Assembly: GCA_963920705.1 (NCBI GenBank)
Contig: OY987230.1
Location: 12,735,320-12,799,319 of the forward strand
Source: Odiellus spinosus
Lineage: Eukaryota > Arthropoda > Arachnida > Opiliones > Phalangiidae
Length of the DNA: 64,000 nucleotides
Direction: 5' to 3'
In this document: piece after piece, positions 11,665 through 58,869 of the stretch
Layout: each line of letters begins with the position of its first letter
How positions within the stretch are numbered: position 1 is the first letter of the stretch
The notes under the pieces: generated by a model
What the model was told of the DNA's origin: nothing
The model's database searches: none
The model's input: the letters and a program-made list of their open reading frames with translations, nothing else
Position numbers and translations under genes: made by a program

Positions 11665-11820
11665 ACACTGCAAACCTACCGCAGGTTTGCAAGGACCCTA
11701 ATTTTCGCAAATTTTTTTCCCTCAAACCTGGCGCAAATTTTAGCCATGCAAAAACCAACATAAATACATCGTCTTTTTTAACTATAAAGGCGTTTTTAAC
11801 TCAAAACAAGTTTATTCTAC

Positions 11821-12124
11821 CACGGACCGTGTATATACCGGACGAGAAAAGCAAGCGTTTTTCTGCCCCGTGCACCGACTCTCAATAGAGCCCAGAAAAT
11901 AATCGTACAAGGTCATTTATTAAATTCAAATTGGCGCGTGTCTTTAAGTCGCTAGGATAGCCCTTTTGAAATTTCGCTCTCACGTGACACAAGAGTCACG
12001 AGAAAAAATAAAAAATGACCTTGTACCTCTATTTTCTCTCTCGCTTCAGAGCCCAATGCTCGGGGAAGTTTTTTTGTACAGTGGAAGGCTGGCGAAATCT
12101 CGTCCGGTATATACACGGTCCGTG
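11821..12124. mobile_element. TIR element (CACGGACCGTGTATATACCGG family) with 7-bp duplication
   Basis: A 304-bp non-coding element. Both ends read CACGGACCGTGTATATACCG and onward to GGACGAGA in inverted orientation, about 27 bp perfect. It is flanked by the 7-bp direct repeat ATTCTAC (11814-11820 and 12125-12131). It sits at the left edge of the satellite block. Confidence 0.9.
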
Positions 12125-12131
12125 ATTCTAC

Positions 12132-12480
12132 AATATTTAATTTATTTATTTATTTATTTATTTATTTCAAGAATGTTATTAATAGTTAAAAATTTGATAT
12201 TATTTATTTTACAGGGGGTGTATTTGATATTATTTATTTTACAGGGGTGTAATATTTTTTTACAATATTTGTCAAAATTTTGATTTTACAGGGGGTGTAT
12301 TTGATATTATTTATTTTACAGGGGGTGTATTTGATATTATTTATTTTACAGGGGTGTAATATTTTTTTACAATATTTGTCAAAATTTTGATTTTACAGGG
12401 GGTGTATTTGATATTATTTATTTTACAGGGGGTGTATTTGATATTGGATTTTTCTACAATAAAAAAATCTAATTTTTTAC
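12132..12480 (+). repeat. ATTT microsatellite and leader array of ~31-bp units
   Basis: A TTTA/ATTT run (12137-12168) leads into about eight units with TTTTACAGGGGGTGTATTTGATATTATTTA-like structure. These are related to the large arrays at 22-34 kb but carry TTGATATTATTT instead of TTATGATTTTTA. A ~120-bp superunit occurs twice (around 12236-12300 and 12355-12420). Confidence 0.85.
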
Positions 12481-12544
12481 AAGGGGTACCCTTTGTAAAA
12501 AAATCCTAAAAAAAATCTAATTTTTTACAGAAAAAATCCAAAAA
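12481..12544. repeat. Short palindromic A/T spacer
   Basis: Contains a near-perfect palindrome, TTTTTTACAAGGGGTACC followed by CTTTGTAAAAAA (about 12474-12503), then poly(A). It separates two different satellites. Confidence 0.5.
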
Positions 12545-13240
12545 AAAAAAAAAAAAAAATCTCAATTTTTCTCAATCTCAATTTTTCTCAATCTCAATTT
12601 TTCTCAATCTCAATTTTTCTCAATCTCAATTTTTCTCAATCTCAATTTTTCTCAATCTCAATTTTTCTCAATCTCAATTTTTCTCAATCTCAATTTTTCT
12701 CAATCTCAATTTTTCTCAATCTCAATTTTTCTCAATCTCAATTTTTCTCAATCTCAATTTTTCTCAATCTCAATTTTTCTCAATCTCAATTTTTCTCAAT
12801 CTCAATTTTTCTCAATCTCAATTTTTCTCAATCTCAATTTTTCTCAATCTCAATTTTTCTCAATCTCAATTTTTCTCAATCTCAATTTTTCTCAATCTCA
12901 ATTTTTCTCAATCTCAATTTTTCTCAATCTCAATTTTTCTCAATCTCAATTTTTCTCAATCTCAATTTTTCTCAATCTCAATTTTTCTCAATCTCAATTT
13001 TTCTCAATCTCAATTTTTCTCAATCTCAATTTTTCTCAATCTCAATTTTTCTCAATCTCAATTTTTCTCAATCTCAATTTTTCTCAATCTCAATTTTTCT
13101 CAATCTCAATTTTTCTCAATCTCAATTTTTCTCAATCTCAATTTTTCTCAATCTCAATTTTTCTCAATCTCAATTTTTCTCAATCTCAATCTCAATTTTT
13201 CTCAATCTCAATCTCAATTTTTCTCAATTTTTCTCAATCT
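12545..13240 (+). repeat. 16-bp satellite array (CTCAATCTCAATTTTT)
   Basis: About 43 nearly perfect head-to-tail copies of a 16-bp unit. The last ~60 bp are irregular (CTCAATCTCAATCTCAA) and grade into the adjoining 15-bp satellite, which shares the CTCAATTTTTC core. The two satellites probably derive from each other. Confidence 0.95.
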
Positions 13241-16200
13241 CAAAAATCTATTTTCCAAATCTCAAAAATCTCAATTTTCCAAATCTCAAATCTCAATTTT
13301 CCAAATCTCAATTTTCCAAATCTCAATTTTCCAAACCTCAATTTTCCAAACCTCAATTTTCCAAATCTCAATTTTCCAAATCTCAATTTTCCAAACCTCA
13401 ATTTTCCAAACCTCAATTTTCCAAACCTCAAATTTCCAAACCTCAAATTTCCAAACCTCAAATTTCCAAACCTCAATTTTCCAAACCTCAATTTTCCAAA
13501 CCTCAATTTTCCAAACCTCAATTTTCCAAACCTCAATTTTCCAAACCTCAATTTTCCAAACCTCAATTTTCTAAACCTCAATTTTTCAAACCTCAATTTT
13601 TCAAACCTCAATTTTTCAAACCTCAATTTTTCAAACCTCAATTTTTCAAACCTCAATTTTTCAAACCTCAATTTTTCAAACCTCAATTTTTCAAACCTCA
13701 ATTTTTCAAACCTCAATTTTTCAAACCTCAATTTTTCAAACCTCAATTTTTCAAACCTCAATTTTTCAAACCTCAATTTTTCAAACCTCAATTTTTCAAA
13801 CCTCAATTTTTCAAACCTCAATTTTTCAAACCTCAATTTTTCAAACCTCAATTTTTCAAACCTCAATTTTTCAAACCTCAATTTTTCAAAACTCAATTTT
13901 TCAAACCTCAATTTTCCAAACCTCAATTTTCCAAACCTCAATTTTCCAAACCTCAATTTTCCAAACCTCAATTTTCCAAACCTCAATTTTCCAAACCTCA
14001 ATTTTCCAAACCTCAATTTTCCAAACCTCAATTTTCCAAACCTCAATTTTCCAAACCTCAATTTTCCAAACCTCAAAAATCTCAATTTTCCAAATCTCAA
14101 AAATCTCAAAAATCTCAATTTTCCAAATCTCAATTTTCCAAATCTCAATTTTCCAAATCTCAATTTTCCAAACCTCAATTTTCCAAATCTCAATTTTCCA
14201 AATCTCAATTTTCCAAACCTCAATTTTCCAAACCTCAATTTTCCAAACCTCAATTTTCCAAACCTCAATTTTCCAAACCTCAATTTTCCAAACCTCAATT
14301 TTCCAAACCTCAATTTTCCAAACCTCAATTTTCCAAACCTCAATTTTCCAAACCTCAATTTTTCAAACCTCAATTTTCCAAACCTCAATTTTTCAAACCT
14401 CAATTTTTCAAACCTCAATTTTTCAAACCTCAATTTTTCAAACCTCAATTTTTCAAACCTCAATTTTTCAAACCTCAATTTTTCAAACCTCAATTTTTCA
14501 AACCTCAATTTTTCAAACCTCAATTTTTCAAACCTCAATTTTTCAAACCTCAATTTTTCAAACCTCAATTTTTCAAACCTCAATTTTTCAAACCTCAATT
14601 TTTCAAACCTCAATTTTTCAAACCTCAATTTTTCAAACCTCAATTTTTCAAACCTCAATTTTTCAAACCTCAATTTTTCAAACCTCAATTTTTCAAACCT
14701 CAATTTTTCAAACCTCAATTTTTCAAACCTCAATTTTTCAAACCTCAATTTTTCAAACCTCAATTTTTCAAACCTCAATTTTTCAAACCTCAATTTTTCA
14801 AACCTCAATTTTTCAAACCTCAATTTTTCAAACCTCAATTTTTCAAACCTCAATTTTTCAAAACTCAATTTTTCAAAACTCAATTTTTCAAACCTCAATT
14901 TTCCAAACCTCAATTTTCCAAACCTCAATTTTCCAAACCTCAATTTTCCAAACCTCAATTTTCCAAACCTCAATTTTCCAAACCTCAATTTTCCAAACCT
15001 CAATTTTCCAAACCTCAATTTTTCAAACCTCAATTTTTCAAACCTCAATTTTTCAAACCTCAATTTTTCAAAACTCAATTTTTCAAACCTCAATTTTCCA
15101 AACCTCAATTTTCCAAACCTCAATTTTCCAAACCTCAATTTTCCAAACCTCAATTTTCCAAACCTCAATTTTCCAAACCTCAATTTTCCAAACCTCAATT
15201 TTCCAAACCTCAATTTTCCAAACCTCAATTTTCCAAACCTCAATTTTCCAAACCTCAAAAATCTCAATTTTCCAAATCTCAAAAATCTCAAAAATCTCAA
15301 TTTTCCAAATCTCAATTTTCCAAATCTCAATTTTCCAAATCTCAATTTTCCAAACCTCAATTTTCCAAATCTCAATTTTCCAAATCTCAATTTTCCAAAC
15401 CTCAATTTTCCAAACCTCAATTTTCCAAACCTCAATTTTCCAAACCTCAATTTTCCAAACCTCAATTTTCCAAACCTCAATTTTCCAAACCTCAATTTTC
15501 CAAACCTCAATTTTCCAAACCTCAATTTTCCAAACCTCAATTTTTCAAACCTCAATTTTCCAAACCTCAATTTTTCAAACCTCAATTTTTCAAACCTCAA
15601 TTTTTCAAACCTCAATTTTTCAAACCTCAATTTTTCAAACCTCAATTTTTCAAACCTCAATTTTTCAAACCTCAATTTTTCAAACCTCAATTTTTCAAAC
15701 CTCAATTTTTCAAACCTCAATTTTTCAAACCTCAATTTTTCAAACCTCAATTTTTCAAACCTCAATTTTTCAAACCTCAATTTTTCAAACCTCAATTTTT
15801 CAAACCTCAATTTTTCAAACCTCAATTTTTCAAACCTCAATTTTTCAAACCTCAATTTTTCAAACCTCAATTTTTCAAACCTCAATTTTTCAAACCTCAA
15901 TTTTTCAAACCTCAATTTTTCAAACCTCAATTTTTCAAACCTCAATTTTTCAAACCTCAATTTTTCAAACCTCAATTTTTCAAACCTCAATTTTTCAAAC
16001 CTCAATTTTTCAAACCTCAATTTTCCAAATCTCAATAATCTCAAAAATCTCAATTTTCCAAATCTCAATTTTCCAAATCTCAATTTTTCAAATCTCAATT
16101 TTTCAAATCTCAATTTTTCAAACCTCAATTTTTCAAACCTCAATTTTTCAAACCTCAATTTTTCAAACCTCAATTTTTCAAACCTCAATTTTTCAAACCT

Positions 16201-19200
16201 CAATTTTTCAAACCTCAATTTTTCAAACCTCAATTTTTCAAACCTCAATTTTTCAAACCTCAATTTTTCAAACCTCAATTTTTCAAACCTCAATTTTTCA
16301 AACCTCAATTTTTCAAACCTCAATTTTTCAAACCTCAATTTTTCAAACCTCAATTTTTCAAACCTCAATTTTTCAAACCTCAATTTTTCAAACCTCAATT
16401 TTTCAAACCTCAATTTTTCAAACCTCAATTTTTCAAACCTCAATTTTTCAAACCTCAATTTTTCAAACCTCAATTTTTCAAACCTCAATTTTTCAAACCT
16501 CAATTTTCCAAATCTCAATAATCTCAAAAATCTCAATTTTCCAAATCTCAATTTTCCAAATCTCAATTTTTCAAATCTCAATTTTTCAAATCTCAATTTT
16601 TCAAACCTCAATTTTTCAAACCTCAATTTTTCAAACCTCAATTTTTCAAACCTCAATTTTTCAAACCTCAATTTTTCAAACCTCAATTTTTCAAACCTCA
16701 ATTTTTCAAACCTCAATTTTTCAAACCTCAATTTTTCAAACCTCAATTTTTCAAACCTCAATTTTTCAAACCTCAATTTTTCAAACCTCAATTTTTCAAA
16801 CCTCAATTTTTCAAACCTCAATTTTTCAAACCTCAATTTTTCAAACCTCAATTTTTCAAACCTCAATTTTTCAAACCTCAATTTTTCAAACCTCAATTTT
16901 TCAAACCTCAATTTTTCAAACCTCAATTTTTCAAACCTCAATTTTTCAAACCTCAATTTTTCAAACCTCAATTTTTCAAACCTCAATTTTTCAAACCTCA
17001 ATTTTTCAAACCTCAATTTTTCAAACCTCAATTTTTCAAACCTCAATTTTTCAAACCTCAATTTTCCAAACCTCAAAAATCTCAATTTTCCAAATCTCAA
17101 AAATCTCAAAAATCTCAATTTTCCAAACCTCAATTTTCCAAATCTCAATTTTCCAAACCTCAATTTTCCAAACCTCAATTTTCCAAACCTCAATTTTCCA
17201 AACCTCAATTTTCCAAACCTCAATTTTCCAAACCTCAATTTTTCAAACCTCAATTTTTCAAACCTCAATTTTTCAAACCTCAATTTTTCAAACCTCAATT
17301 TTTCAAACCTCAATTTTTCAAACCTCAATTTTTCAAACCTCAATTTTTCAAACCTCAATTTTTCAAACCTCAATTTTTCAAACCTCAATTTTTCAAACCT
17401 CAATTTTTCAAACCTCAATTTTTCAAACCTCAATTTTTCAAACCTCAATTTTTCAAACCTCAATTTTTCAAACCTCAATTTTTCAAACCTCAATTTTTCA
17501 AACCTCAATTTTTCAAACCTCAATTTTCCAAACCTCAATTTTTCAAACCTCAATTTTTCAAACCTCAATTTTTCAAACCTCAATTTTTCGAACCTCAATT
17601 TTTCGAACCTCAATTTTTCGAACCTCAATTTTTCGAACCTCAATTTTTCGAACCTCAATTTTTCGAACCTCAATTTTTCGAACCTCAATTTTTCGAACCT
17701 CAATTTTTCGAACCTCAATTTTTCGAACCTCAATTTTTCGAACCTCAATTTTTCGAACCTCAATTTTTCGAACCTCAATTTTTCGAACCTCAATTTTTCG
17801 AACCTCAATTTTTCGAACCTCAATTTTTCGAACCTCAATTTTTCGAACCTCAATTTTTCGAACCTCAATTTTTCGAACCTCAATTTTTCGAACCTCAATT
17901 TTTCGAACCTCAATTTTTCGAACCTCAATTTTTCGAACCTCAATTTTTCGAACCTCAATTTTTCGAACCTCAATTTTTCGAACCTCAATTTTTCGAACCT
18001 CAATTTTTCGAACCTCAATTTTTCGAACCTCAATTTTTCGAACCTCAATTTTTCGAACCTCAATTTTTCGAACCTCAATTTTTCGAACCTCAATTTTTCG
18101 AACCTCAATTTTTCGAACCTCAATTTTTCGAATCTCAATTTTTCGAATCTCAATTTTCCGAATCTCAAAAATATCAAAAATTACAAAAATCTCAAAAATT
18201 CCAAATCCCAATTTTCCCAATCCCGATTTTCCCAATCCCGATTTTCCCAATCCCGATTTTCCCAACCCCGATTTTCCCAATCCCGATTTTCCAAATCCCA
18301 ATTTTCCAAATCCCAATTTTCCAAATCCCAATTTTCCAAATCCCAATTTTCCAAACCCCAATTTTCCAAACCCCAATTTTCCAAATCCCAATTTTCCAAA
18401 TTCCAATTTTCCAAATCCCAATTTTCCAAATCCCAATTTTCCAAATCCCAATTTTCCAAATCCCAATTTTCCAAATCCCAATTTTCCAAATCCCAATTTT
18501 CCAAATCCCAATTTTCCAAATCCATATTTTCCAAACCTCAATTTTCCAAACCTCAATTTTCCAAACCTCAATTTTCCAAACCTCAATTTTCCAAAGCTCA
18601 ATTTTCCACATCTCAATAATCTCAAAAATCTCAATTTTCCAAATCTCAATTTTCCAAATCTCAATTTTCCAAATCTCAATTTTCCAAACCTCAATTTTCC
18701 AAACCTCAATTTTCCAAGCCTCAATTTTCCAAGCCTCAATTTTCCAAGCCTCAATTTTCCAAGCCTCAATTTTCCAAGCCTCAATTTTCCAAGCCTCAAT
18801 TTTCCAAGCCTCAATTTTCCAAGCCTCAATTTTCCAAACCTCAATTTTCCAAACCTCAATTTTCCAAATCTCAATAATCTCAAAAAATCTCAATTTTCCA
18901 AATCCCAATTTTCCAAATCTCAATTTTCCAAACCTCAATTTTCCAAGCCTCAATTTTCCAAGCCTCAATTTTCCAAGCCTCAATTTTCCAAGCCTCAATT
19001 TTCCAAGCCTCAATTTTCCAAGCCTCAATTTTCCAAGCCTCAATTTTCCAAGCCTCAATTTTCCAAGCCTCAATTTTCCAAACCTCAATTTTCCAAACCT
19101 CAATTTTCCAAGCCTCAATTTTCCAAGCCTCAATTTTCCAGGCCTCAATTTTCCAAGCCTCAATTTTCCAAGCCTCAATTTTCCAAGCCTCAATTTTCCA

Positions 19201-22020
19201 AGCCTCAATTTTCCAAGCCTCAATTTTCCAAGCCTCAATTTTCCAAGCCTCAATTTTCCAAGCCTCAATTTTCCAAGCCTCAATTTTCCAAGCCTCAATT
19301 TTCCAAGCCTCAATTTTCCAAGCCTCAATTTTAAAAAGCTCAATTTTCCAAAGCTCAATTTTCCAAAGCTCAATTTTTCAAACCTCAATTTTCCAAATCT
19401 CAATAATCTCAAAAATCTCAAAATTCTCAATTTTCCAAATCTCAATTTTCCAAATCTCAATTTTCCAAACCTCAATTTTCCAAGCCTCAATTTTCCAAGC
19501 CTCAATTTTCCAAGCCTCAATTTTCCAAGCCTCAATTTTCCAAGCCTCAATTTTCCAAGCCTCAATTTTCAAAGCCTCAATTTTCAAAGCCTCAATTTTC
19601 CAAGCCTCAATTTTCCAAGCCTCAATTTTCCAAGCCTCAATTTTCCAAGCCTCAATTTTCCAAGCCTCAATTTTCCAAGCCTCAATTTTCCAAGCCTCAA
19701 TTTTCCAAGCCTCAATTTTCCAAGCCTCAATTTTCCAAGCCTCAATTTTCCAAGCCTCAATTTTCCAAACCTCAATTTTCCAAGCCTCAATTTTCCAAGC
19801 CTCAATTTTCCAAGCCTCAATTTTCCAAGCCTCAATTTTCCAAGCCTCAATTTTCCAAGCCTCAATTTTCCAAGCCTCAATTTTCCAAGCCTCAATTTTC
19901 CAAGCCTCAATTTTCCAAGCCTCAATTTTCCAAGCCTCAATTTTCCAAGCCTCAATTTTCCAAGCCTCAATTTTCCAAGCCTCAATTTTCCAAGCCTCAA
20001 TTTTCCAAGCCTCAATTTTCCAAACCTCAATTTTCCAAATCCCAATTTTCCAAATCCCAATTATCCAAATCCATATTTTCCAAACCTCAATTTTCCAAAC
20101 CTCAATTTTCCAAGCCTCAATTTTCCAAACATCAATTTTCCAAACCTCAATTTTCCAAACCTCAATTTTCCAAACCTCAATTTTCCAAAGCTCAATTTTC
20201 CAAAGCTCAATTTTCCAAATCTCAATAATCTCAAAAATCTCAATTTTCCAAACCTCAATTTTCCAAGCCTCAATTTTCCAAGCCTCAATTTTCCAAGCCT
20301 CAATTTTCCAAGCCTCAATTTTCCAAGCCTCAATTTTCCAAGCCTCAATTTTCCAAGCCTCAATTTTCCAAGCCTCAATTTTCCAAGCCTCAATTTTCCA
20401 AACCTCAATTTTCCAAACCTCAATTTTCCAAATCTCAATAATCTCAAAAAATCTCAATTTTCCAAATCCCAATTTTCCAAATCCCAATTTTCCAAATCCC
20501 AATTTTCCAAATCTCAATTTTCCAAACCTCAATTTTCCAAACCTCAATTTTCCAAGCCTCAATTTTCCAAGCCTCAATTTTCCAAGCCTCAATTTTCCAA
20601 GCCTCAATTTTCCAAGCCTCAATTTTCCAAGCCTCAATTTTCCAAGCCTCAATTTTCCAAGCCTCAATTTTCCAAGCCTCAATTTTCCAAGCCTCAATTT
20701 TCCAAGCCTCAATTTTCCAAGCCTCAATTTTCCAAGCCTCAATTTTCCAAGCCTAAATTTTCCAAGCCTCAATTTTCCAAGCCTCAATTTTCCAAGCCTC
20801 AATTTTCCAAGCCTCAATTTTCCAAACCTCAATTTTCCAAATCCCAATTTTCCAAATCCCAATTATCCAAATCCATATTTTCCAAACCTCAATTTTCCAA
20901 ACCTCAATTTTCCAAGCCTCAATTTTCCAAACATCAATTTTCCAAACCTCAATTTTCCAAACCTCAATTTTCCAAACCTCAATTTTCCAAAGCTCAATTT
21001 TCCAAAGCTCAATTTTCCAAATCTCAATAATCTCAAAAATCTCAATTTTCCAAACCTCAATTTTCCAAGCCTCAATTTTCCAAGCCTCAATTTTCCAAGC
21101 CTCAATTTTCCAAGCCTCAATTTTCCAAGCCTCAATTTTCCAAGCCTCAATTTTCCAAGCCTCAATTTTCCAAGCCTCAATTTTCCAAACCTCAATTTTC
21201 CAAACCTCAATTTTCCAAATCTCAATAATCTCAAAAAATCTCAATTTTCCAAATCCCAATTTTCCAAATCCCAATTTTCCAAATCCCAATTTTCCAAATC
21301 TCAATTTTCCAAACCTCAATTTTCCAAGCCTCAATTTTCCAAGCCTCAATTTTCCAAGCCTCAATTTTCCAAGCCTCAATTTTCCAAGCCTCAATTTTCC
21401 AAGCCTCAATTTTCCAAGCCTCAATTTTCCAAGCCTCAATTTTCCAAGCCTCAATTTTCCAAGCCTCAATTTTCCAAGCCTCAATTTTCCAAGCCTCAAT
21501 TTTCCAAGCCTCAATTTTCCAAGCCTCAATTTTCCAAGCCTCAATTTTCCAAGCCTCAATTTTCCAAGCCTCAATTTTCCAAGCCTCAATTTTCCAAGCC
21601 TCAATTTTCCAAGCCTCAATTTTCCAAGCCTCAATTTTCCAAAGCTCAATTTTTCAAACCTCAATTTTCCAAATCTCAATAATCTCAAAAATCTCAATTT
21701 TCCTAATCTCAATTTTCCAAATCTCAATTTTCCAAATCTCAATTTTCCAAATCTCAATTTTCCAAATCTCAATTTTCCTAATCTCAATTTTCCAAACCTC
21801 AATTTTCCAAGCCTCAATTTTCCAAGCCTCAATTTTCCAAGCCTCAATTTTCCAAGCCTCAATTTTCCAAGCCTCAATTTTCCAAACCTCAATTTTCCAA
21901 ACTTCAATTTTCCAAGCCTCAATTTTCCAAACCTCAATTTTCCAAACCTCAATTTTCCAAACCTCAATTTTCCAAACCTCGATTTTGCAAGCCTCGATTT
22001 TCCAAGCCTCGATTTTCCAA
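13241..22020 (+). repeat. 15-bp satellite array (CAATTTTCCAAACCT), ~585 copies with higher-order structure
   Basis: Head-to-tail 15-bp units fill 8.8 kb. Unit variants occur in homogeneous blocks: TTTTCCAAACC, TTTTTCAAACC, TTTTTCGAACC (only 17585-18150), TTTTCCAAATCCC (18190-18530) and TTTTCCAAGCC (from 18710 rightward). Off-register junction motifs recur at fixed distances: CCTCAAAAATCTC at 14071, 15253 and 17071; CTCAATAATC at 16031 and 16514 (483 bp) and at 20221 and 21023 (802 bp). These mark higher-order repeats. Because 15 is divisible by 3 and no stop occurs on the minus strand, reading frames of up to 1645 codons appear. They encode only iterations of [15 protein letters not shown] and are not genes. 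Confidence 0.97.
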
Positions 22021-22024
22021 ACCT

Positions 22025-25000
22025 TTTTTTACAGGGGTGTATTTATTATTTTTATTATTTACAGGAGGGTATTTATGATTTTTATTTTTTACAGGGGGTG
22101 TATTTATGATTTTTATTTTTTACAGGGGGTGTATTTATGATTTTTATTTTTTACAGGGGGTGTATTTATGATTATTTTTTACAGGGGGTGTATTTATGAT
22201 TTTTATTTTTTACAGGGGGTGTATTTATGATTTTTATTTTTTACAGGGGGTGTATTTATGATTTTTATTTTTTACAGGGGGTGTATTTATGATTTTTATT
22301 TTTTACAGGAGGTGTATTTATGATTTTTATTTTTTACAGGGGGTGTATTTATGATTTTTATTTTTTACAGGGGGTGTATTTATGATTTTTATTTTTTACA
22401 GGGGGTGTATTTATCATTTTTATTTTTTTACAGGGGGTGTATTTATGATTTTTATTTTTTTACAGGGGGTGTATTTATGATTTTTATTATTTTACACGGG
22501 GTGTATTTATGATTTTTATTTTTTTACAGCGGGTGTATTTATGATTTTTATTTTTTTACAGGTGGTGTATTTATCATTTTTATTTTTTTACAGGGGGTGT
22601 ATTTGATTTTTATTTTTTACAGGGGGTGTATTTATGATTTTAATTTTTTACAGGGGGTGTATTTATGATTTTTATTTTTTACAGGGGGTGTATTTATGAT
22701 TTTTATTTTTTACAGGGGGTGTATTAATGATTTTTATTTTTTACAGGGGGTGCAATTGATTTTTATTTTTTTACAGGGGGTGTATTTATGATTTTTATTT
22801 TTTTACAGGGGGTGTATATATGATTTTTATTTTTTTACAGGGGGTGTATTTATGATTTTTATTTTTTACAGGGGGTGTATTTATGATTTTTATTTTTTAC
22901 AGGGGGTGTATTTATGATTTTTATTTTTTACAGGGGGTGTATTTATGATTTTTATTTTTTACAGGGGGTGTATTTATGATTTTTATTTTTTTACAGGGGG
23001 TGCAATTGATTTTTATTTTTTTACAGGGGGTGCAATTGATTTTTATTTTTTTACAGGGGGTGTATTTATGATTTTTATTTTTTTACAGGGGTGTATATAA
23101 TTTTTATTTTTTACAGGGGGTGTATTTATGATTTTTATTTTTTTACAGGGGGTGTATTTATGATTTTTATTTTTTTACAGGGGGTGCAATTGATTTTTAT
23201 TTTTTTACAGGGGGTGTATTTATTATTTTTATTTTTTTACAGGGGTGTATATATGATTTTTATTTTTTTACAGGGGGTGTATTTATCATTTTTATTTTTT
23301 TACAGGGGGTGTATTTATGATTTTTATTTTTTACAGGGGGTGTATTTATGATTTTTATTTTTTACAGGGGGTGTATTTAAGATTTTTATTTTTTACATGG
23401 GGTGTATTTATGATTTTTATTTTTTACAGGGGTGTATTTATGATTTTTATTTTTTTACAGGGGTGTATATATGATTTTTATTTTTTTACAGGGGGTGTAT
23501 TTATCATTTTTATTTTTTTACAGGGGGTGTATTTATGATTTTTATTTTTTACAGGGGGTGTATTTATGATTTTTATTTTTTACAGGGGGTGTATTTAAGA
23601 TTTTTATTTTTTACATGGGGTGTATTTATGATTTTTATTTTTTACAGGGGTGTATTTATGATTTTTATTTTTTACAGGGGGTGTATTTATGATTTTTATT
23701 TTTTACAGGGGGTGTATTTATGATTTTTATTTTTTACAGGGGGTGTATTTATCATTTTTATTTTTTTACAGGGGGTGTATTTATGATTTTTATTTTTTTA
23801 CAGGGGGTGTATTTATGTTTTTTATTTTTTTACAGGGGGTGCAATTGATTTTTATTTTTTTACAGGGGGTGTATTTATGATTTTTATTTTTTTACAGGGG
23901 GTGTATATATGATTTTTATTTTTTACAGGGGGTGTATTTATCATTTTTATTTTTTTACAGGGGGTGCAATTGATTTTTATTTTTTTACAGGGGGTGTATT
24001 TATGATTTTTATTTTTTTACAGGGGGTGTATATATGATTTTTATTTTTTTACAGGGGGTGTATTTATCATTTTTATTTTTTACAGGGGGTGTATTTGATT
24101 TTTATTTTTTACAGGGGGTGTATTTATGATTTTTATTTTTTACAGGGGGTGTATTTATGATTTTTATTTTTTACAGGGGGTGCAATTGATTTTTATTTTT
24201 TTACAGGGGGTGTATTTATGATTTTTATTTTTTTACAGGGGGTGTATATATGATTTTTATTTTTTTACATTGGGTGTATTTATGATTTTTATTTTTTACA
24301 GGGGGTGTATTTATGATTTTTATTTTTTACAGGGGGTGTATTTATGATTTTTATTTTTTACAGGGGGTGTATTTATGATTTTTATTTTTTACAGGGGGTG
24401 TATTTATGATTTTTATTTTTTTACAGGGGGTGCAATTGATTTTTATTTTTTTACAGTGGGTGTATTTATGATTTTTATTTTTTTACAGGGGTGTATATAA
24501 TTTTTATTTTTTACAGGGGGTGTATTTATGATTTTTATTTTTTTACAGGGGGTGTATTTATGATTTTTATTTTTTTACAGGGGGTGCAATTGATTTTTAT
24601 TTTTTTACAGGGGGTGTATTTATTATTTTTATTTTTTTACAGGGGTGTATATATGATTTTTATTTTTTTACAGGGGGTGTATTTATCATTTTTATTTTTT
24701 TACAGGGGGTGTATTTATGATTTTTATTTTTTACAGGGGGTGTATTTATGATTTTTATTTTTTACAGGGGGTGTATTTAAGATTTTTATTTTTTACATGG
24801 GGTGTATTTATGATTTTTATTTTTTACAGGGGTGTATTTATGATTTTTATTTTTTTACAGGGGTGTATATATGATTTTTATTTTTTTACAGGGGGTGTAT
24901 TTATCATTTTTATTTTTTTACAGGGGGTGTATTTATGATTTTTATTTTTTACAGGGGGTGTATTTATGATTTTTATTTTTTACAGGGGGTGTATTTAAGA

Positions 25001-26940
25001 TTTTTATTTTTTACATGGGGTGTATTTATGATTTTTATTTTTTACAGGGGTGTATTTATGATTTTTATTTTTTACAGGGGTGTATTTATGATTTTTATTT
25101 TTTACAGGGGGTGTATTTATGATTTTTATTTTTTACAGGGGGTGTATTTATGATTTTTATTTTTTACAGGGGGTGTATTTATCATTTTTATTTTTTTACA
25201 GGGGGTGTATTTATGATTTTTATTTTTTTACAGGGGGTGTATTTATGTTTTTTATTTTTTTACAGGGGGTGCAATTGATTTTTATTTTTTTACAGGGGGT
25301 GTATTTATGATTTTTATTTTTTTACAGGGGGTGTATATATGATTTTTATTTTTTACAGGGGGTGTATTTATCATTTTTATTTTTTTACAGGGGGTGCAAT
25401 TGATTTTTATTTTTTTACAGGGGGTGTGTTTATGATTTTTATTTTTTTACAGGGGGTGTATATATTATTTTTATTTTTTTACAGGGGGTGTATTTATCAT
25501 TTTTATTTTTTACAGGGGGTGTATTTGATTTTTATTTTTTACAGGGGGTGTATTTATGATTTTTATTTTTTACAGGGGGTGTATTTATGATTTTTATTTT
25601 TTACAGGGGGTGTATTTATGATTTTTATTTTTTACAGGGGGTGTATTTATGATTTTTATTTTTTACAGGGGGTGTATTTATGATTTTTATTTTTTACAGG
25701 GGGTGTATTTATGATTTTTATTTTTTACAGGGGGTGTATTTATGATTTTTATTTTTTACAGGGGGTGTATATATGATTTTTATTTTTTTACAGGGGGTGT
25801 ATTTATCATTTTTTTTTACAGGGGGTGTATTTGATTTTTATTTTTTACAGGGGGTGTATTTATGATTTTTATTTTTAACAGGGGGTGTATTTATCATTTT
25901 TATTTTTTTACAGGGGGTGTATTTATGATTTTTATTTTTTACAGGGGGTGTATTTATGATTTTTATTTTTTACAGGGGGTGTATTTAAGATTTTTATTTT
26001 TTACATGGGGTGTATTTATGATTTTTATTTTTTACAGGGGTGTATTTATGATTTTTATTTTTTACAGGGGGTGTATTTATGATTTTTATTTTTTACAGGG
26101 GGTGTATTTATGATTTTTATTTTTTACAGGGGGTGTATTTATCATTTTTATTTTTTTACAGGGGGTGTATTTATGATTTTTATTTTTTTACAGGGGGTGT
26201 ATTTATGTTTTTTATTTTTTTACAGGGGGTGCAATTGATTTTTATTTTTTTACAGGGGGTGTATTTATGATTTTTATTTTTTTACAGGGGGTGTATATAT
26301 GATTTTTATTTTTTACAGGGGGTGTATTTATCATTTTTATTTTTTTACAGGGGGTACAATTGATTTTTATTTTTTTACAGGGGGTGTATTTATGATTTTT
26401 ATTTTTTTACAGGGGGTGTATATATTATTTTTATTTTTTTACAGGGGGTGTATTTATCATTTTTATTTTTTACAGGGGGTGTATTTGATTTTTATTTTTT
26501 ACAGGGGGTGTATTTATGATTTTTATTTTTTACAGGGGGTGTATTTATGATTTTTATTTTTTACAGGGGGTGTATTTATGATTTTTATTTTTTACAGGGG
26601 GTGTATTTATGATTTTTATTTTTTACAGGGGGTGTATTTATGATTTTTATTTTTTACAGGGGGTGTATTTATGATTTTTATTTTTTACAGGGGGTGTATT
26701 TATGATTTTTATTTTTTACAGGGGGTGTATATATGATTTTTATTTTTTTACAGGGGGTGTATTTATCATTTTTTTTTACAGGGGGTGTATTTGATTTTTA
26801 TTTTTTACAGGGGGTGTATTTATGATTTTTATTTTTAACAGGGGGTGTATTTATGATTTTTATTTAATACAGGGGGTGTATTTATGATTTTTATTTTTTA
26901 CGGTTGGTGTATTTATGATTTTTATTTTTATTTATTTTAT
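22025..26940 (+). repeat. ~31-bp satellite array, forward orientation
   Basis: About 160 head-to-tail units of roughly 29-32 bp, consensus TTTTTTACAGGGGGTG then TATTTATGATTTTTA. Length varies mainly in the T run before ACAG. Minor variants include GGTGCAATTGATTTTTA, TATATATGA and ACATGGGG. Higher-order repetition is visible: the block at 23091 recurs 1400 bp later (24491), and the block at 23689 recurs at 25119 and 26079. Short open frames encoding FIFYRG/LQGVYL iterations are by-products. Confidence 0.97.
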
Positions 26941-29900
26941 ATTTGTAAAAAATAAAAATCATAAAAACACTCCCTGTAAAAAAATAAAAATCATAAATAA
27001 ACCCCCTGTAAAAAATAAAAATCATAAATACACCCCCTGTAAAAAATAGAGATCATAAATACACCCCCTGTAAAAAATAAAAATCATAAATACACCCCCT
27101 GTAAAAAAATAAAAATCATATATACACCCCCTGTAAAAAAATAAAAATCATTTATACACCCCCTGTAAAAAATAAAAATCATAAATACACCCCCTGTAAA
27201 AAAATAAAAATCATATATACACCTCCTGTAAAAAAATAAAAATCATATATACACCCCCTGTAAAAAAATAAAAATCATAAATACACCCCCTGTAAAAAAA
27301 TAAAAATCATAAACACATCCCCTGTAAAAAAATAAAAATCAAATACACCCCCTGTTAAAAAATAAAAATCATAAATACACCCCGTGTAAAAAATAAAAAT
27401 CATAAATACACCCTCTGTAAAAAATAAAAATCATAAATACACCCCCTGTAAAAAATAAAAATCATAAATACACCCCCTGTAAAAAATAAAAATCATAAAT
27501 ACACCCCCTGTAAAAAATAAAAATCATAAATACACCCCCTGTAAAAAATAAAAATCAAATACACCCCGTGTAAAATAATAAAAATCATAAATACACCCCC
27601 TGTAAAAAAATAAAAATCATATATACACCCCCTGTAAAAAATAAAAATCATAAATACACCCCCTGTAAAAAAATAAAAATCATATATACACCCCCTGTAA
27701 AAAAATAAAAATTATTTATACACCCCCTGTAAAAAATAAAAATCATAAATACACCCCCTGTAAAAAAATAAAAATCATATATACACCCCCTGTAAAAAAA
27801 TAAAAATCATAAATACACCCCCTGTTAAAAAATAAAAATCATAAATACACCCCGTGTAAAAAAATAAAAATCATATATACACCCCCTGTAAGAAAATAAA
27901 AATCATAAATACACCCCCTGTAAAAAAATAAAAATCATAAACACATCCCCTGTAAAAAATAAAAATCAAATACACCCCCTGTAAAAAAATAAAAATGATA
28001 AATACACCCCCTGTAAAAAAATAAAAATCATAAATACACCCCCTGTTAAAAAATAAAAATCATAAATACACCCCGTGTAAAAAATAAAAATCATAAATAC
28101 ACCCCCTGTAAAAAATAAAAATCATAAATACACCCCCTGTAAAAAATAAAAATCATAAATACACCCCCTGTAAAAAATAAAAATCAAATACACCCCGTGT
28201 AAAATAATAAAAATCATAAATACACCCCCTGTAAAAAAATAAAAATCATATATACACCCCCTGTAAAATATAAAATTCATAAATACACCCCCTGTAAAAA
28301 AATAAAAATCATATATACACCCCCTGTAAAAAAATAAATATCATTTATACACCCCCTGTAAAAAATAAAAATCATAAATACACCCCCTGTAAAAAAATAA
28401 AAATCATATATACACCCCCTGTAAAAAAATAAAAATCATTTATACACCCCCTGTAAGAAAATAAAAATCATAAATACACCCCCTGTAAAAAAATAAAAAT
28501 CATAAATACACCCACTGTAAAAAATAAAAAGCATATATACACCCCCTGTAAAAAATAAAAATCATAAATACACCCCCTGTAAAAAATAAAAATCATAAAT
28601 ACACCCCCTGTAAAAAAATAAAAATCATAAATACACCCCCTGTAAAAAATAAAAATGATAAATACACCCCCTGTAAAAATAAAAATGATAAATACACCCC
28701 CTGTAAAAAATAAAAATCATAAATACACCCCCTGTAAAAAATAAAAATGATAAATACACCCCCTGTAAAAAATAAAAAAGATAAATACACCCCCATTAAA
28801 AAATAAAAATGATAAATACACCCTCTGTAAAAAATAAAAATTATAAATACACCCCATGTAAAAAATAAAAATGATAATTACACCCCTGTAAAAAATAAAA
28901 ATAATAAATACAACCCCTGTAAAAAATAAAAATAATAAATACACCCCCTGTAAAAAAATAAAAATGATAAATACACCCCCTGTAAAAAAATAAAAATGAT
29001 AAATACACCCCCTGTAAAAAAATAAAAATCATAAATACAACCCCTGTAAAAAAATAAAAATCATAAATACACCCACTGTAAAAAAATAAAAATCATAAAT
29101 ACACCACCTGTAAAAAATAAAAATCATAAATACACCCCCTGTAAAAAATAAAAATCATAAATACACCCCCTGTAAAAAAATAAAAATCAAAAATACACCC
29201 CCTGTAAAAAAATAAAAATCATAAATGCACCCCCTGTAAAGAAATAAAAATCATATATACACCCTGTAAAAAATAAAAATCATAAATACACCCCCTGTAA
29301 AAAAATAAAAATCATAAATACATCCCCTGTAAAAAAATAGAAATCAAATACACCCCCTGTTAAAAAAATAAAAATGATAAATACACCCCCTGTAAAAAAA
29401 TAAAATCATAAATACACCCCCTGTTAAAAAATAAAAATCATAAATACACCCCGTGTAAAAAAATAAAAATCATAAATACACCCCCTGTAAAAAAATAATC
29501 ATATATACACCCCCTGTAAAAAATAAAAATCATAAATACACCCCCTGTAAAAAAATAAAAATCATATATACACCCCCAATAAAATAAAAATCATAAATAC
29601 ACCCCCTGTAAAAAAATAAAAATCAAATGCACCCCCTGTAAAAAAATAAAAATCATAAATACACCCCCTGTAAAAAAATAAAAATCATAAATACACCCCC
29701 TGTAAAAAAATAAAAATGATAAATACACCCCCTGTAAAAAAATAAAAATCATAAATACACCCCCTGTAAAAAAATAAAAATCATAAATACACCCCGAGTA
29801 AAAAAATAATCATAAATACACCCCCTGTAAAAAAATAAAAATCATAAATACAACCCCTGTAAAAAAATAAAAATCATAAATACACCCACTGTAAAAAAAT

Positions 29901-32900
29901 AAAAATCATAAATACACCACCTGTAAAAAATGAAAATCATAAATACACCCCCTGTAAAAAAATAAAAATCATAAATACACCCCCTGTAAAAAATAAAAAT
30001 CAAAAATACACCCCCTGTAAAAAAATAATCATATATACACCCATGTAAAAAATAAAAATCATAAATACACCCCCTGTAAAAAAATAAAAATCATATATAC
30101 ACCCCCAATAAAATAAAAATCATAAATACACCCCCTGTAAAAAAAATAAAAATCAAATGCACCCCCTGTAAAAAAATAAAAATCATAAATACACCCCCTG
30201 TAAAAAAATAAAAATCAAATGCACCCCCTGTAAAAAAATAAAAATCATAAATACACCCCCTGTAAAAAAATAAAAATCATAAATACACCCCCTGTAAAAA
30301 ATAAAAATCATAAATACACCCCCTGTAAAAAAATAAAAATCATAAATACACCCCCTGTAAAAAAATAAAAATGATAAATACACCCCCTGTAAAAAAATAA
30401 AAATGATAAATACACCCCCTGTAAAAAAATAAAAATCATAAATACACCCCCTGTAAAAAAATAAAAATGATAAATACACCCCCTGTAAAAATAAAAATGA
30501 TAAATACACCCCCTGTAAAAAATAAAAATCATAAATACACCCCCTGTAAAAAATAAAAATCATAAATACACCCCCTGTAAAAAATAAAAATGATAAATAC
30601 ACCCCCTGTAAAAATAAATGATAAATACACCCCCTTTAAAAAATAAAAATGATAAATACACCCTCTGTAAAAAATAAAAATTATAAATACACCCCATGTA
30701 AAAAATAAAAATGATAATTACACCCCTGTAAAAAATAAAAATAATAAATACAACCCCTGTAAAAAATAAAAATAATAAATACACCCCCTGTAAAAAAATA
30801 AAAATGATAAATACACCCCCTGTAAAAAAATAAAAATGATAAATACACCCCCTGTAAAAAAATAAAAATCATAAATACAACCCCTGTAAAAAAATAAAAA
30901 TCATAAATACACCCACTGTAAAAAAATAAAAATCATAAATACACCACCTGTAAAAAATAAAAATCATAAATACACCCCCTGTAAAAAATAAAAATCATAA
31001 ATACACCCCCTGTAAAAAAATAAAAATCAAAAATACACCCCCTGTAAAAAAATAAAAATCATAAATGCACCCCCTGTAAAGAAATAAAAATCATATATAC
31101 ACCCTGTAAAAAATAAAAATCATAAATACACCCCCTGTAAAAAAATAAAAATCATAAATACATCCCCTGTAAAAAAATAGAAATCAAATACACCCCCTGT
31201 TAAAAAAATAAAAATGATAAATACACCCCCTGTAAAAAAATAAAATCATAAATACACCCCCTGTTAAAAAATAAAAATCATAAATACACCCCGTGTAAAA
31301 AAATAAAAATCATAAATACACCCCCTGTAAAAAAATAATCATATATACACCCCCTGTAAAATATAAAAATCATAAATACACCCCCTGTAAAAAAATAAAA
31401 ATCATATATACACCCCCAATAAAATAAAAATCATAAATACACCCCCTGTAAAAAAATAAAAATCAAATGCACCCCCTGTAAAAAAATAAAAATCATAAAT
31501 ACACCCCCTGTAAAAAAATAAAAATCATAAATACACCCCCTGTAAAAAAATAAAAATGATAAATACACCCCCTGTAAAAAAATAAAAATCATAAATACAC
31601 CCCCTGTAAAAAAATAAAAATCATAAATACACCCCGAGTAAAAAAATAATCATAAATACACCCCCTGTAAAAAAATAAAAATCATAAATACAACCCCTGT
31701 AAAAAAATAAAAATCATAAATACACCCACTGTAAAAAAATAAAAATCATAAATACACCACCTGTAAAAAATGAAAATCATAAATACACCCCCTGTAAAAA
31801 AATAAAAATCATAAATACACCCCCTGTAAAAAATAAAAATCAAAAATACACCCCCTGTAAAAAAATAATCATATATACACCCATGTAAAAAATAAAAATC
31901 ATAAATACACCCCCTGTAAAAAAATAAAAATCATATATACACCCCCAATAAAATAAAAATCATAAATACACCCCCTGTAAAAAAAATAAAAATCAAATGC
32001 ACCCCCTGTAAAAAAATAAAAATCATAAATACACCCCCTGTAAAAAAATAAAAATCAAATGCACCCCCTGTAAAAAAATAAAAATCATAAATACACCCCC
32101 TGTAAAAAAATAAAAATCATAAATACACCCCCTGTAAAAAATAAAAATCATAAATACACCCCCTGTAAAAAAATAAAAATGATAAATACACCCCCTGTAA
32201 AAAAATAAAAATGATAAATACACCCCCTGTAAAAAAATAAAAATGATAAATACACCCCCTGTAAAAAAATAAAAATCATAAATACACCCCCTGTAAAAAA
32301 ATAAAAATGATAAATACACCCCCTGTAAAAATAAAAATGATAAATACACCCCCTGTAAAAAATAAAAATCATAAATACACCCCCTGTAAAAAATAAAAAT
32401 CATAAATACACCCCCTGTAAAAAATAAAAATGATAAATACACCCCCTGTAAAAATAAATGATAAATACACCCCCTTTAAAAAATAAAAATGATAAATACA
32501 CCCTCTGTAAAAAATAAAAATTATAAATACACCCCATGTAAAAAATAAAAATGATAATTACACCCCTGTAAAAAATAAAAATAATAAATACAACCCCTGT
32601 AAAAAATAAAAATAATAAATACACCCCCTGTAAAAAAAATAAAAATGATAAATACACCCCCTGTAAAAAAATAAAAATGATAAATACACCCCCTGTAAAA
32701 AAATAAAAATCATAAATACAACCCCTGTAAAAAAATAAAAATCATAAATACACCCACTGTAAAAAATAAAAATCATAAATACACCACCTGTAAAAAATGA
32801 AAATCATAAATACACCCCCTGTAAAAAAATAAAAATCATAAATACACCCCCTGTAAAAAATAAAAATCAAAAATACACCCCCTGTAAAAAAATAATCATA

Positions 32901-33700
32901 TATACACCCATGTAAAAAATAAAAATCATAAATACACCCCCTGTAAAAAAATAAAAATCATATATACACCCCCAATAAAATAAAAATCATAAATACACCC
33001 CCTGTAAAAAAAATAAAAATCAAATGCACCCCCTGTAAAAAAATAAAAATCATAAATACACCCCCTGTAAAAAAATAAAAATCAAATGCACCCCCTGTAA
33101 AAAAATAAAAATCATAAATACACCCCCTGTAAAAAAATAAAAATCATAAATACACCCCCTGTAAATAAATAAAAATCATAAATACACCCACTGTAAAAAA
33201 ATAAAAATCATATATACACCCCCTGTAAAAAATAAAAATCATAAATACACCCCCTGTAAAAAAATAAAAATGATAAATACACCCCCTGTAAAAAAATAAA
33301 AATCATAAATACACCCCCTGTAAAAAAATAAAAATCATAAATACACCCCCTGTAAAAAAATAAAAATCATAAATACACCCCCTGTAAAAAAATAAAAATG
33401 ATAAATACACCCCCTGTAAAAATAAAAATGATAAATACACCCCCTGTAAAAAATAAAAATCATAAATACACCCCCTGTAAAAAATAAAAATCATAAATAC
33501 ACCCCCTGTAAAAAATAAAAATGATAAATACACCCCCTGTAAAAAATAAAAATGATAAATACACCCTCTGTAAAAAATAAAAATGATAAATACACCCCCT
33601 GTAAAAAATAAAAATGATAATTACACCCCTGTAAAAAATAAAAATAATAAATACAACCCCTGTAAAAAATAAAAATAATAAATACACCCCCTGTAAAAAA
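26941..33700 (-). repeat. ~31-bp satellite array, inverted orientation
   Basis: About 215 units that are the reverse complement of the array at 22025-26940 (AAAAATAAAAATCATAAA then TACACCCCCTGTA). Orientation flips at about 26935-26945 with no unique spacer. A block of about 1840 bp is repeated almost exactly (for example 30183-30602 and 32023-32442; 30881 matches 29041). Variants such as ACACCCCCAATAAAAT and CAAATGCACCCC are absent from the forward arm, so the arms have evolved separately. Confidence 0.97.
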
Positions 33701-33702
33701 AG

Positions 33703-34444
33703 ATTTGAGATTTGGAAAATTGGAAAATTGAGATTTGGAAAATTGAGGTTTGGAAAATTGAGGTTTGGAAAATTGAGGTTTGGAAAATTGAGGTTTGGAA
33801 AATTGAGGTTTGGAAAATTGAGGTTTGGAAAATTGAGGTTTGGAAAATTGAGGTTTGGAAAATTGAGGTTTGGAAAATTGAGGTTTGGAAAATTGAGGTT
33901 TGGAAAATTGAGGTTTGGAAAATTGAGGTTTGGAAAATTGAGGTTTGGAAAATTGAGGTTTGGAAAATTGAGGTTTGGAAAATTGAGGTTTGGAAAATTG
34001 AGGTTTGGAAAATTGAGGTTTGGAAAATTGAGAGTTGGAAAATTGAGGTTTGGAAAATTGAGGTTTGGAAAATTGAGAGTTGGAAAATTGAGAGTTGGAA
34101 AATTGAGAGTTGGAAAATTGAGAGTTGGATAATTGAGAGTTGGAAAATTGAGAGTTGGAAAATTGAGAGTTGGAAAATTGAGAGTTGGAAAATTGAGAGT
34201 TGGAAAATTGAGAGTTGGAAAATTGAGAGTTGGAAAATTGAGAGATGGAAAATTGAGAGTTGGAAAATTGAGAGTTGGAAAATTGAGAGTTGGAAAATTG
34301 AGAGTTGGAAAATTGAGAGTTGGAAAATTGAGAGTTGGAAAATTGAGAGTTGGAAAATTGAGAGTTGGAAAATTGAGAGTTGGAAAATTGAGAGTTGGAA
34401 AATTGAGAGTTGGAAAATTGAGAGTTGGAAAATTGAGAGTTGGA
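33703..34444 (-). repeat. 15-bp satellite, inverted copy (GGAAAATTGAGGTTT)
   Basis: About 49 units that are the reverse complement of the 13.2-22.0 kb satellite. The first ~22 are GGAAAATTGAGGTTT. The rest switch to GGAAAATTGAGAGTT, a variant not seen in the large array. Both plus-strand frames with [10 protein letters not shown] and RFGKL iterations are periodicity artefacts. Confidence 0.95.
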
Positions 34445-34530
34445 ACCTTTTGAAATTAAAACAACCTTTTGAAATTAAAACAACCTTTTGAAATTAAAAC
34501 AACCTTTTGAAATTAAAACAACCTTCCAAA
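34445..34530. repeat. 19-bp array (CCTTTTGAAATTAAAACAA), ~4.5 copies
   Basis: Four full and one partial head-to-tail copies mark the right end of the satellite block. Confidence 0.9.
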
Positions 34531-34659
34531 AATAAAAAAGAGCTGACAAGGATATGGAAAAAATAAGCTTAATAAATGCTCGGTGCTCACGAGCGCTATG
34601 AGCTTTACAAACTATGACAGCAATGTTTCTAAGTAACCTCCTCCTCTTTTATGATAGCA

Positions 34660-50177: not shown

Positions 50178-50977
50178 GGAAGATGCTAAACTTATAAAAG
50201 TGACTAAGAAAAAACAAAATATAATATAATTTAATATTATAATCAAAGAGCTAAATAGTGGCTTTAGCCATAGACCTATAACATAACATATATAAGAACT
50301 GACTTCAGTTAGAAGTTCCCCTCGGTTTACGTTCTCTTGACCTTGCTTTTGGGTCATACGAAGGAGAAATATGTATGAGTTATAATAGGCTTGTAACCCG
50401 TCTAGGACTATCTTGAAAATCGAGATCTCGGCTATTGAATATAGGAGAGGGGCTAGTGGGCTATTGGGGTTCGCGCGTGCTGTGAACTTAAGGTGTAAAC
50501 TAATAGCTAGTTTTCATAGTGCTATCGTATTATAGAAGTTGACTGCACTACATAAACATAAATTGCGAGGCCTCACACTTATGCCAATCACACAAAATGT
50601 CCTAACAAAAGTGGCAACAACATTGGCTGAACAAACATGTCTTGTAATCTTTTCCGAAATTATGAAAATATAAGAACTGTATATCGCCTAAAATACATGT
50701 ATAGTACAAAAATATTTGATAAAAACCAGTTAAACTAGAAAAATACACAAACTTAGATTATTCCCAGGGCCCACTGACGTATAAAGTCAATTAAGCTTTA
50801 TTGCACCTGGTACGGTTGGTTTGATCAGCTTTGCTGAGTAATTTTTTCTTTATATTTAGTACTTAAATCAAGAGTCTCTCCAGGCTCAAGGATGATTTCT
50901 GGCAGCGCGTAAACAGAACTACTAATCGAGTAAGTTTTGGTTTCCAGTTTCGCCTCGAGCATTTGACGTTTCGAAAG
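50178..50977. other. Divergent intergenic region between ISOC2-like and secreted-peptide genes
   Basis: About 800 bp between the two oppositely oriented starts. Parts are duplicated elsewhere: 50620-50781 at 57087-57263 and 50782-50965 at 63409-63595. A possible TATA-like run TTTATATTTAG lies at 50850-50860, about 120 bp before the peptide ATG, but I cannot place the cap site. Confidence 0.5.
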
Positions 50978-57054: not shown

Positions 57055-57263
57055 TTGACTGGCGATTATCTTTCCCAATCTACTAGAACATTGGCTGAAC
57101 AAACATATATTACTGTTTATGGCTTGTAATCTGTCCCGAAATTATGAAATTATAGGAATTGTATATCGCCTAAAATACACGTTTAGTACAAAAATATTTG
57201 ATAAAAACCAATTAAACTAGAAAAATACACAAACTTAGATTATTCCCATGGCCCACTGACGTA
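57055..57263. repeat. Rearranged duplicate of ISOC2 exon-1 scrap plus upstream DNA, left part
   Basis: 57055-57084 matches 50134-50163 (inside ISOC2 exon 1, one mismatch). From 57087 the sequence follows 50620-50781 (ACATTGGCTGAACAAACAT through CCCACTGACGTA) with small differences. The intervening ~450 bp of the parent are missing. The homology resumes at 63409. Confidence 0.85.
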
Positions 57264-58824: not shown

Positions 58825-58869
58825 GTCTAACACGAAAGTGTTAACTTCTATATTAAAAGACTAGCCCTT

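What the first reader, a model, noticed from the sequence alone, without database searches (positions are those of the whole stretch)
12132..34530. 22-kb compound satellite organised as a giant inverted structure
Two unrelated-looking satellites (15-bp and ~31-bp) occur in the order 15-mer, 31-mer, then inverted 31-mer, inverted 15-mer, with the flip at about 26.94 kb and no unique spacer. The arms are unequal (8.8 and 4.9 kb against 6.8 and 0.74 kb). Such a structure could extrude a hairpin or cruciform, give double-stranded RNA if transcribed, or mark a breakage-fusion or centromere/heterochromatin-like site. Function is inference; the layout is seen directly.
Basis: partly seen in the sequence, partly recalled or inferred. 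Interest (0 to 1): 0.75.

Follow-up and report, generated by a model that had tools for sequence, protein, structure and literature searches.

The report
Mirrored satellite DNA, repeated genome-wide
The window holds a 22-kb stretch of short repeats whose second half mirrors the first, and the same mirrored design with the same direction recurs at many other places in this probably arthropod genome.

Summary
The layout is real: 15-mer(+), 31-mer(+), 14-nt AT spacer, 31-mer(-), 15-mer(-), at the stated places and sizes. It is not a one-off. The window lies in a 443-Mb genome with TTAGG chromosome ends. Exact-core pattern searches give 300 matches for flips of this polarity (88+212) against 34 for the opposite (10+24), controls 0. 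Ten further flip loci, about 20 kb read of each, follow the same design as far as read. In the 11 loci 5851 of 5869 repeat cores of three families point to the centre; only the 31-mer had been used to find the loci. Flip sequences differ between loci, arms diverge separately, and at three loci tested no shared ends or target-site duplications were found. A 61-bp TA-flanked unit may be the seed of the G-rich repeats. Closest known kinds: Tribolium macro-dyad satellites and foldback elements; it fails part of each definition, so I call it a new variant of a known kind. Favoured mechanism, inferred, about 0.5: spread of an already inverted compound, then separate turnover of each arm. No function is shown.

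The parts
12192..12458 (+). 30-mer relative of the 31-mer satellite, about 8 units, G-type strand pointing to the centre
   Evidence: BLAST hits to both 31-mer arms at roughly 70-80%
12473..12503 (.). imperfect palindrome TTTTTTACAAGGGGTACCCTTTGTAAAAAAA ('K' motif) of the outer zone, shared with other loci
   Evidence: same motif family near outer edges of C2_0.61, C3_16.23, C6_17.13, C11_14.59
12560..13228 (+). 16/22-mer array (TCTCAATTTTTCTCAA), by eye a relative of the 15-mer
   Evidence: 42 exact units, all +
13229..22018 (+). 15-mer satellite, left arm (CAAACCTCAATTTTC and variants)
22025..26929 (+). 31-mer satellite, left arm (TACAGGGGGTGTATTTATGATTTTTATTTTT)
26930..26943 (.). AT-rich 14-nt spacer at the flip (centre of the dyad)
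   Evidence: sequence between the flanking cores differs at the other 10 loci
26944..33701 (-). 31-mer satellite, right arm, inverted
33702..34445 (-). 15-mer satellite, right arm, inverted
34444..34537 (-). 19-mer x4 at the right edge; by eye a diverged relative of the outer 18-mer (TTTTATTTTCAAGGGG) of other loci, not tested against it; its alignment to the 61-bp unit is not above chance
   Evidence: negative (447 of 500 shuffles reach the score)

Best explanation
This is one locus of a dispersed family of mirrored compound satellites (macro-dyads). SHOWN: in the 11 loci read, tandem arrays of several families point to one main flip, the polarity is strongly biased genome-wide, and in the window the arms are diverged, non-identical mirror partners with homologous 15|31 junctions. 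INFERRED: the compound was already inverted when it spread (foldback-like dispersal, perhaps seeded by a 61-bp TA-flanked unit with CCCCTTGTAAAA ends, whose end-to-end junction has the same polarity). After arrival the arrays of each arm expanded and were homogenised separately, and the centre, an unstable palindrome, was trimmed differently at each locus. I propose no host function; the structure is most simply a by-product of this turnover.
For: Eleven loci incl. the window on six contigs (C2, C3, C4, C6, C7, C11) have a main flip 31+ to 31-; where other layers (15/16/24/48-mer, 17/18/19/22-mer) lie within the roughly 10 kb read on each side they are mirrored too. Cores pointing to the centre: 31-mer 2579 of 2594, 18/22-type 617 of 619, 15/16-type 2655 of 2656; only the 31-mer flip was used to find the 10 extra loci. 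Genome-wide exact-core matches: 88+212 of this polarity, 10+24 of the other, all controls 0. L054, fetched beside a one-sided array hit, is mirrored too, with the flip between a 24-mer(+) and a 31-mer(-). The two 15|31 junctions of the window share phase (CC or TC, then TTTTTTTACAGGGG) and a rare first-unit variant (5 of 125 and 8 of 177 units); this 15>31 form recurs in both arms of C6_22.05, in C6_17.13 L and in C4_18.37 R, and a 31>15 form recurs in both arms of C6_22.05 and of C6_17.13. Sister arms agree at 0.93-0.99 in 5 of 11 loci; 0 of 5000 random pairings reach the observed mean of all 11. Divergence is somewhat higher at both ends of an arm than in the middle (quartile means 0.81, 0.61, 0.68, 0.84 over 21 arms), as I would expect of unequal exchange within arms. 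The 61-bp unit matches 1078 places at up to 3 mismatches, controls 0.
Against: No shared terminal sequence and no convincing target-site duplication at the three loci tested (best direct repeats 8 nt at C3, 10 nt at C11, none of 7 or more at the window; not at matching edges). The sequence at the flip differs at all 11 loci, which independent inversions would also give. In 6 of 11 loci the sister arms do not agree (-0.40 to 0.48), only 11 of 22 arms have their sister as best match, and arms of different loci reach 0.96. Junction forms of C2, C7 and C11 loci are different ones (42 distinct forms in 72 matches). By eye only 5 of 14 edges with unique flank stop at tip + TA of the 61-bp unit, one of them with an extra base. 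The 15-, 16- and 24-mers show no alignment to that unit. No transposase was sought.
Confidence: 0.5

Rival explanations
1. Independent inverted duplication at each locus: a single-orientation compound array is copied back on itself by fold-back priming or template switching of one particular strand, or both 3' ends of a break are extended and then joined, so that the polarity is set by the chemistry and the junction is unique each time.
For: Sequence between the flanking cores (gaps 8-91 bp) differs at 11 of 11 loci; among the 50 listed of 88 short-gap flips most sequences differ by eye, though some recur, e.g. copies at C3:27.05 Mb and a 17-mer type on C3 and C6; the flip can fall between different layers (L054); polarity is biased.
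Against: Growth from the centre should leave the youngest repeats there: divergence is not lowest at the centre (rank correlation with distance positive in 11 of 21 arms; quartile means 0.81, 0.61, 0.68, 0.84). Requires the same kind of event, at the same end, many times.
Confidence: 0.32
2. The dyad is maintained by selection as a chromosomal structure (centromere-like unit, chromatin domain, replication or pairing site), as proposed for Tribolium.
For: Biased polarity and one main flip per locus; precedent in print (PMC13081366, passages seen).
Against: No conserved inversion site, which the Tribolium authors stress; arm lengths in the window very unequal; no kinetochore, transcription or chromatin data can be had here.
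Confidence: 0.1
3. Assembly artefact: palindromic read chimeras or misjoined arrays.
For: Satellite arrays are hard to assemble; near-exact copies inside each arm (623 and 818 bp) could hide errors; no reads are available here.
Against: The arms are not copies of one another (153 bp longest shared); a polarity ratio of 300 to 34 matches is not expected of random misjoins; no SMRTbell-like adapter within 6 substitutions in the window (adapter letters recalled).
Confidence: 0.04

Closest known systems
Macro-dyad satellite DNA of Tribolium (T. madens, T. freemani, T. castaneum), PMC13081366 (abstract and passages seen)
   Same: Multi-kb satellite arrays of two families in inverted subarrays, mostly two per array; reproducible transitions between families; hairpin potential over tens of kb.
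   Different: There the inversion sites are conserved in sequence, T. madens repeats derive from a ~110-bp unit (704-bp minor monomer), and the regions are multi-Mb, putatively (peri)centromeric; here monomers are about 14-63 bp, the flip sequence differs between loci, flips are scattered along contigs, this one beside genes, and outer layers of further families occur. The paper states that such symmetries had been documented only in Tribolium.
Foldback elements (Drosophila FB, recalled; Tetris: PMC4079207, abstract and sections 10 and 17 seen; Tm1 of root-knot nematodes: PMC3169594, abstract seen)
   Same: Long inverted arms containing tandem repeats of variable copy number, non-coding middle; a route from transposon to satellite has been described for Tetris.
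   Different: No common flanking domain, no terminal repeat and no 8-10 bp target-site duplication found at the loci tested here; far larger; no transposase known.
TA-target MITEs (Tc1/mariner-like, recalled) turned into tandem arrays
   Same: The 61-bp unit has 12-bp inverted ends CCCCTTGTAAAA and neighbours share a TA.
   Different: No isolated single copy among the 7 places fetched for it; superfamily unknown; a search for the end and unit letters in papers gave two hits with unrelated titles.

Membership tests
Tribolium-type macro-dyad satellites | satellite arrays with a change of monomer orientation giving multi-kb inverted subarrays | tested here: met
Tribolium-type macro-dyad satellites | two satellite families with reproducible transition sequences | tested here: met
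   15>31 and 31>15 forms recur between arms and between some loci, mainly C6 and C4; other loci have other forms (42 distinct in 72 matches of the 15>31 kind)
Tribolium-type macro-dyad satellites | inversion site conserved in sequence between loci | tested here: not met
   different at 11 of 11 loci
Tribolium-type macro-dyad satellites | location in multi-megabase (peri)centromeric regions | tested here: inconclusive
   flips are spread along contigs; window has gene exons near; centromeres unknown
Foldback transposable elements | long inverted arms of tandem repeats | tested here: met
Foldback transposable elements | conserved terminal domain shared by copies | tested here: not met
   outer edges that were reached differ; only motif families are shared
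Foldback transposable elements | target-site duplication of 8-10 bp | tested here: not met
   3 loci tested, none convincing
Foldback transposable elements | mobilising transposase | not tested
   no search made
TA-target MITE (61-bp unit) | terminal inverted repeats | tested here: met
   CCCCTTGTAAAA / TTTTACAAGGGG in the units listed
TA-target MITE (61-bp unit) | insertion flanked by TA | tested here: inconclusive
   5 of 14 edges with unique flank stop at tip + TA, one with an extra base (by eye)
TA-target MITE (61-bp unit) | isolated copies in unique DNA | tested here: inconclusive
   7 of 1078 places fetched for this, all 7 in arrays; empty sites not searched
Centromeric or heterochromatic satellite | association with kinetochore or heterochromatin marks | not testable with these tools
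   no chromatin data

The most novel reading that the evidence does not exclude
A genome-wide system of mirrored satellites in which repeat families, at least two of them without detectable kinship, obey one orientation rule towards a single centre at scores of loci, made de novo at each locus by a strand-specific process such as fold-back priming or two-sided 3' extension at recurrent breaks, so that each dyad records a break-repair history.
Probability: 0.25. Interest if true: 0.85.

Novelty: new variant of a known kind. Interest (0 to 1): 0.66.

Why it matters
Large inverted satellite symmetries are described in print as known only from Tribolium (PMC13081366). Here they occur in a genome with TTAGG telomeres (Tribolium has another telomere repeat, recalled), with tiny monomers, in this case beside genes, and with a polarity bias that can be counted. 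Many loci of one genome, with different centres and arms, make it possible to ask directly how giant palindromes arise, whether arms exchange sequence, and whether the symmetry or the sequence is what persists.

Tried and rejected
Centre-out growth (youngest repeats at the flip): tested and not supported (one of 22 arms, C7 left, had fewer than 30 usable units and was dropped). Recent hairpin duplication or chimeric read as source of the window: not supported, the arms have separate higher-order repeats. Coding repeats (long open frames): rejected, several frames on both strands are open because the 15-mer lacks stops. Telomeric fusion: the ten contig ends of 1.5 kb that I fetched, one starting and ending in N, hold none of the 31-mer or K cores. 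Flip polarity from the first DNA search is ascertained by its query; the pattern searches of both polarities replace it. Chromosome-specific variants: the TATGATT unit is among the top three in 8 of 8 arms on C6 and 0 of 14 elsewhere, but L054 on C2 has it too, so I do not claim specificity. Exact-pattern or BLAST searches elsewhere found nothing: viral contigs, genome contigs, plasmids; Rfam and tRNA none. Letters of the 31- and 15-mers in papers: 4 hits with unrelated titles. The polarity ratio counts matches, not loci: overlapping matches and higher-order copies inflate both sides. By eye, with 50-kb clustering, the 50 plus-strand sites listed of 212 fall in 28 clusters on C1-C3, and the 24 opposite sites in 18 clusters genome-wide, 8 of them of the 61-bp-unit type.
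Full report
What is there. TRF and direct reading confirm a compound satellite at 12.19-34.54 kb. From the left: a 30-mer related to the 31-mer, a short zone with a palindrome around AAGGGGTACCC, a 16/22-mer, 8.8 kb of 15-mer, 4.9 kb of 31-mer, a 14-nt AT spacer, 6.8 kb of inverted 31-mer, 0.74 kb of inverted 15-mer and four copies of a 19-mer. Orientation is pure in each arm. Base composition shows the flip as a sign change of GC and AT skew between the 26-27 and 27-28 kb bins.

The arms are mirror partners but not copies. Higher-order repeats are private to each arm: exact matches reach 623 bp within the left and 818 bp within the right 31-mer arm, 153 bp between them; 5 unit types are shared, covering 76 of 116 left and 73 of 138 right units in the split. 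Yet the two 15|31 junctions agree in phase and in a rare first-unit variant. I read this as common origin followed by separate turnover.

Genome context. The window is C6:12735320-12799319 of a 443-Mb, 286-contig genome. Five of five right contig ends examined are TTAGG arrays; the five left ends show none, one of them starting and ending in N. TTAGG is recalled as typical of arthropods; the window also holds RAD23, isochorismatase-domain and reverse-transcriptase fragments. The species is not known to me.

Recurrence. A DNA search with the flip hit many places; I fetched 10 flip loci on C2, C3, C4, C6, C7 and C11, about 20 kb each. Each has a main flip of the same polarity. Layers seen are 31-mers (29-32), 15/16/24/48-mers, 17/18/19/22-mers, and 61-63-bp units near some outer edges. 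How far the mirror can be checked varies: C3, C11, C2_0.61 and the window were read to both edges or nearly so, while the right 9.9 kb of C6_10.79 and the left 9.9 kb of C2_14.41 hold 31-mers only. Further small flips occur: opposite ones in the outer 61-63-bp units of C11, C2_0.61 and C3 and one at the C3 centre; same-polarity ones in the outer units of C3 and a second at its centre. Because the query contained the flip, its polarity in these 10 loci is ascertained. Pattern searches of both polarities give 88 (gap 0-30) and 212 (gap 31-61) matches of this polarity against 10 and 24 of the other, controls 0. Families not used in the search are oriented equally strictly: 2655 of 2656 cores of the 15/16 type and 617 of 619 of the 18/22 type point to the centre; 31-mer 2579 of 2594. 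These counts cover the 11 loci only. Two arrays not picked by a flip hit were also sampled: L054 is mirrored; L055 shows one side only in 3.6 kb.

Centres and arms. The sequence at the flip differs at all 11 loci. Sister-arm unit spectra agree closely in 5 of 11 loci and not in 6; 11 of 22 arms have the sister as best match, and some arms of different loci are as close (up to 0.96). Unit divergence is somewhat higher at both ends of arms than in the middle. This fits homogenisation within each arm, with exchange between arms or recent common origin at some loci only.

Possible seed. A 61-bp unit with ends CCCCTTGTAAAA, repeated with a single TA between copies, matches 1078 places at up to 3 mismatches (361 + and 717 -, controls 0). 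Of 31 exact copies 24 lie on C1 and C45. The 31-mer aligns to it better than nearly all shuffles (0, 3 and 1 of 500 for three versions), as do two 18-mers and the 22-mer (0, 3 and 3 of 500). Two 17-mers and a 19-mer of other loci are weaker (95, 38 and 38 of 500), one 17-mer scores on the other strand (2 of 500), and the 15-, 16- and 24-mers and the window's 19-mer do not match (141, 80, 394 and 447 of 500). Edges that stop at tip + TA: 5 of 14 read by eye, one with an extra base. The palindrome at such a junction has the polarity of the dyads. This is suggestive only.

How it most likely works. I favour spread of a compound that was already inverted, followed by separate turnover of arms and trimming of the centre (0.5); independent inverted duplication by a strand-specific process is the chief rival (0.32). 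Both explain the biased polarity; neither is shown. No function is shown. Naked-strand folding across the flip is very stable but says nothing about cells.

Known kinds. Macro-dyads in Tribolium (PMC13081366; abstract and passages) match in organisation but not in conserved inversion site, monomer size or putative centromeric place. Foldback elements (PMC4079207, abstract and sections 10 and 17; PMC3169594, abstract) match in arms but not in termini or target duplications. In the listings I saw no title or abstract start that reports these repeats or such dyads outside Tribolium; most listed papers were not opened, and subscription journals are mostly not in that library. PMC13427858 uses the term only in its reference list (passages).

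Noticed in passing
window 57262-58825: Inverted repeat with 405-nt arms (100% by the repeat finder, 99.5% by BLAST), partly built of tandem 75-mers and 36-mers, 741 nt apart; a second, small case of tandem repeats in inverted arms.
   Followed up: partly
window 11820-12125: MITE-like element with 27-bp inverted ends and, by eye, ATTCTAC on both sides, directly left of the satellite.
   Followed up: partly
window 58877-60902 and 62048-62477: 100-mer (20 copies) and related 91-mer (about 5 copies) arrays, about 74-79% alike over longer pieces.
   Followed up: no
window 37973-38639: 112-bp tandem repeat, about 6 copies.
   Followed up: no
window 43796-45965 and 49533-50513: RAD23-like (XPC-binding, UBA) and isochorismatase-domain exons, minus strand.
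   Followed up: no
L030, L032, L034, L036, L038: TTAGG arrays at the right end of five of five contigs and at none of the five left ends; L036 also has a CTTAGGTTAG variant.
   Followed up: partly
C1:1.10-7.9 Mb and C45: 24 of 31 exact 61-bp units lie on C1 and C45; C1:4147276 and two C45 places share the same opposite flip, so C45 may be an allelic or duplicated copy.
   Followed up: no
L051 from 445 and L053 from 208: Tandem 61-bp units start at a tip beside TA directly in unique DNA; L053 then passes into a 24-mer array.
   Followed up: partly
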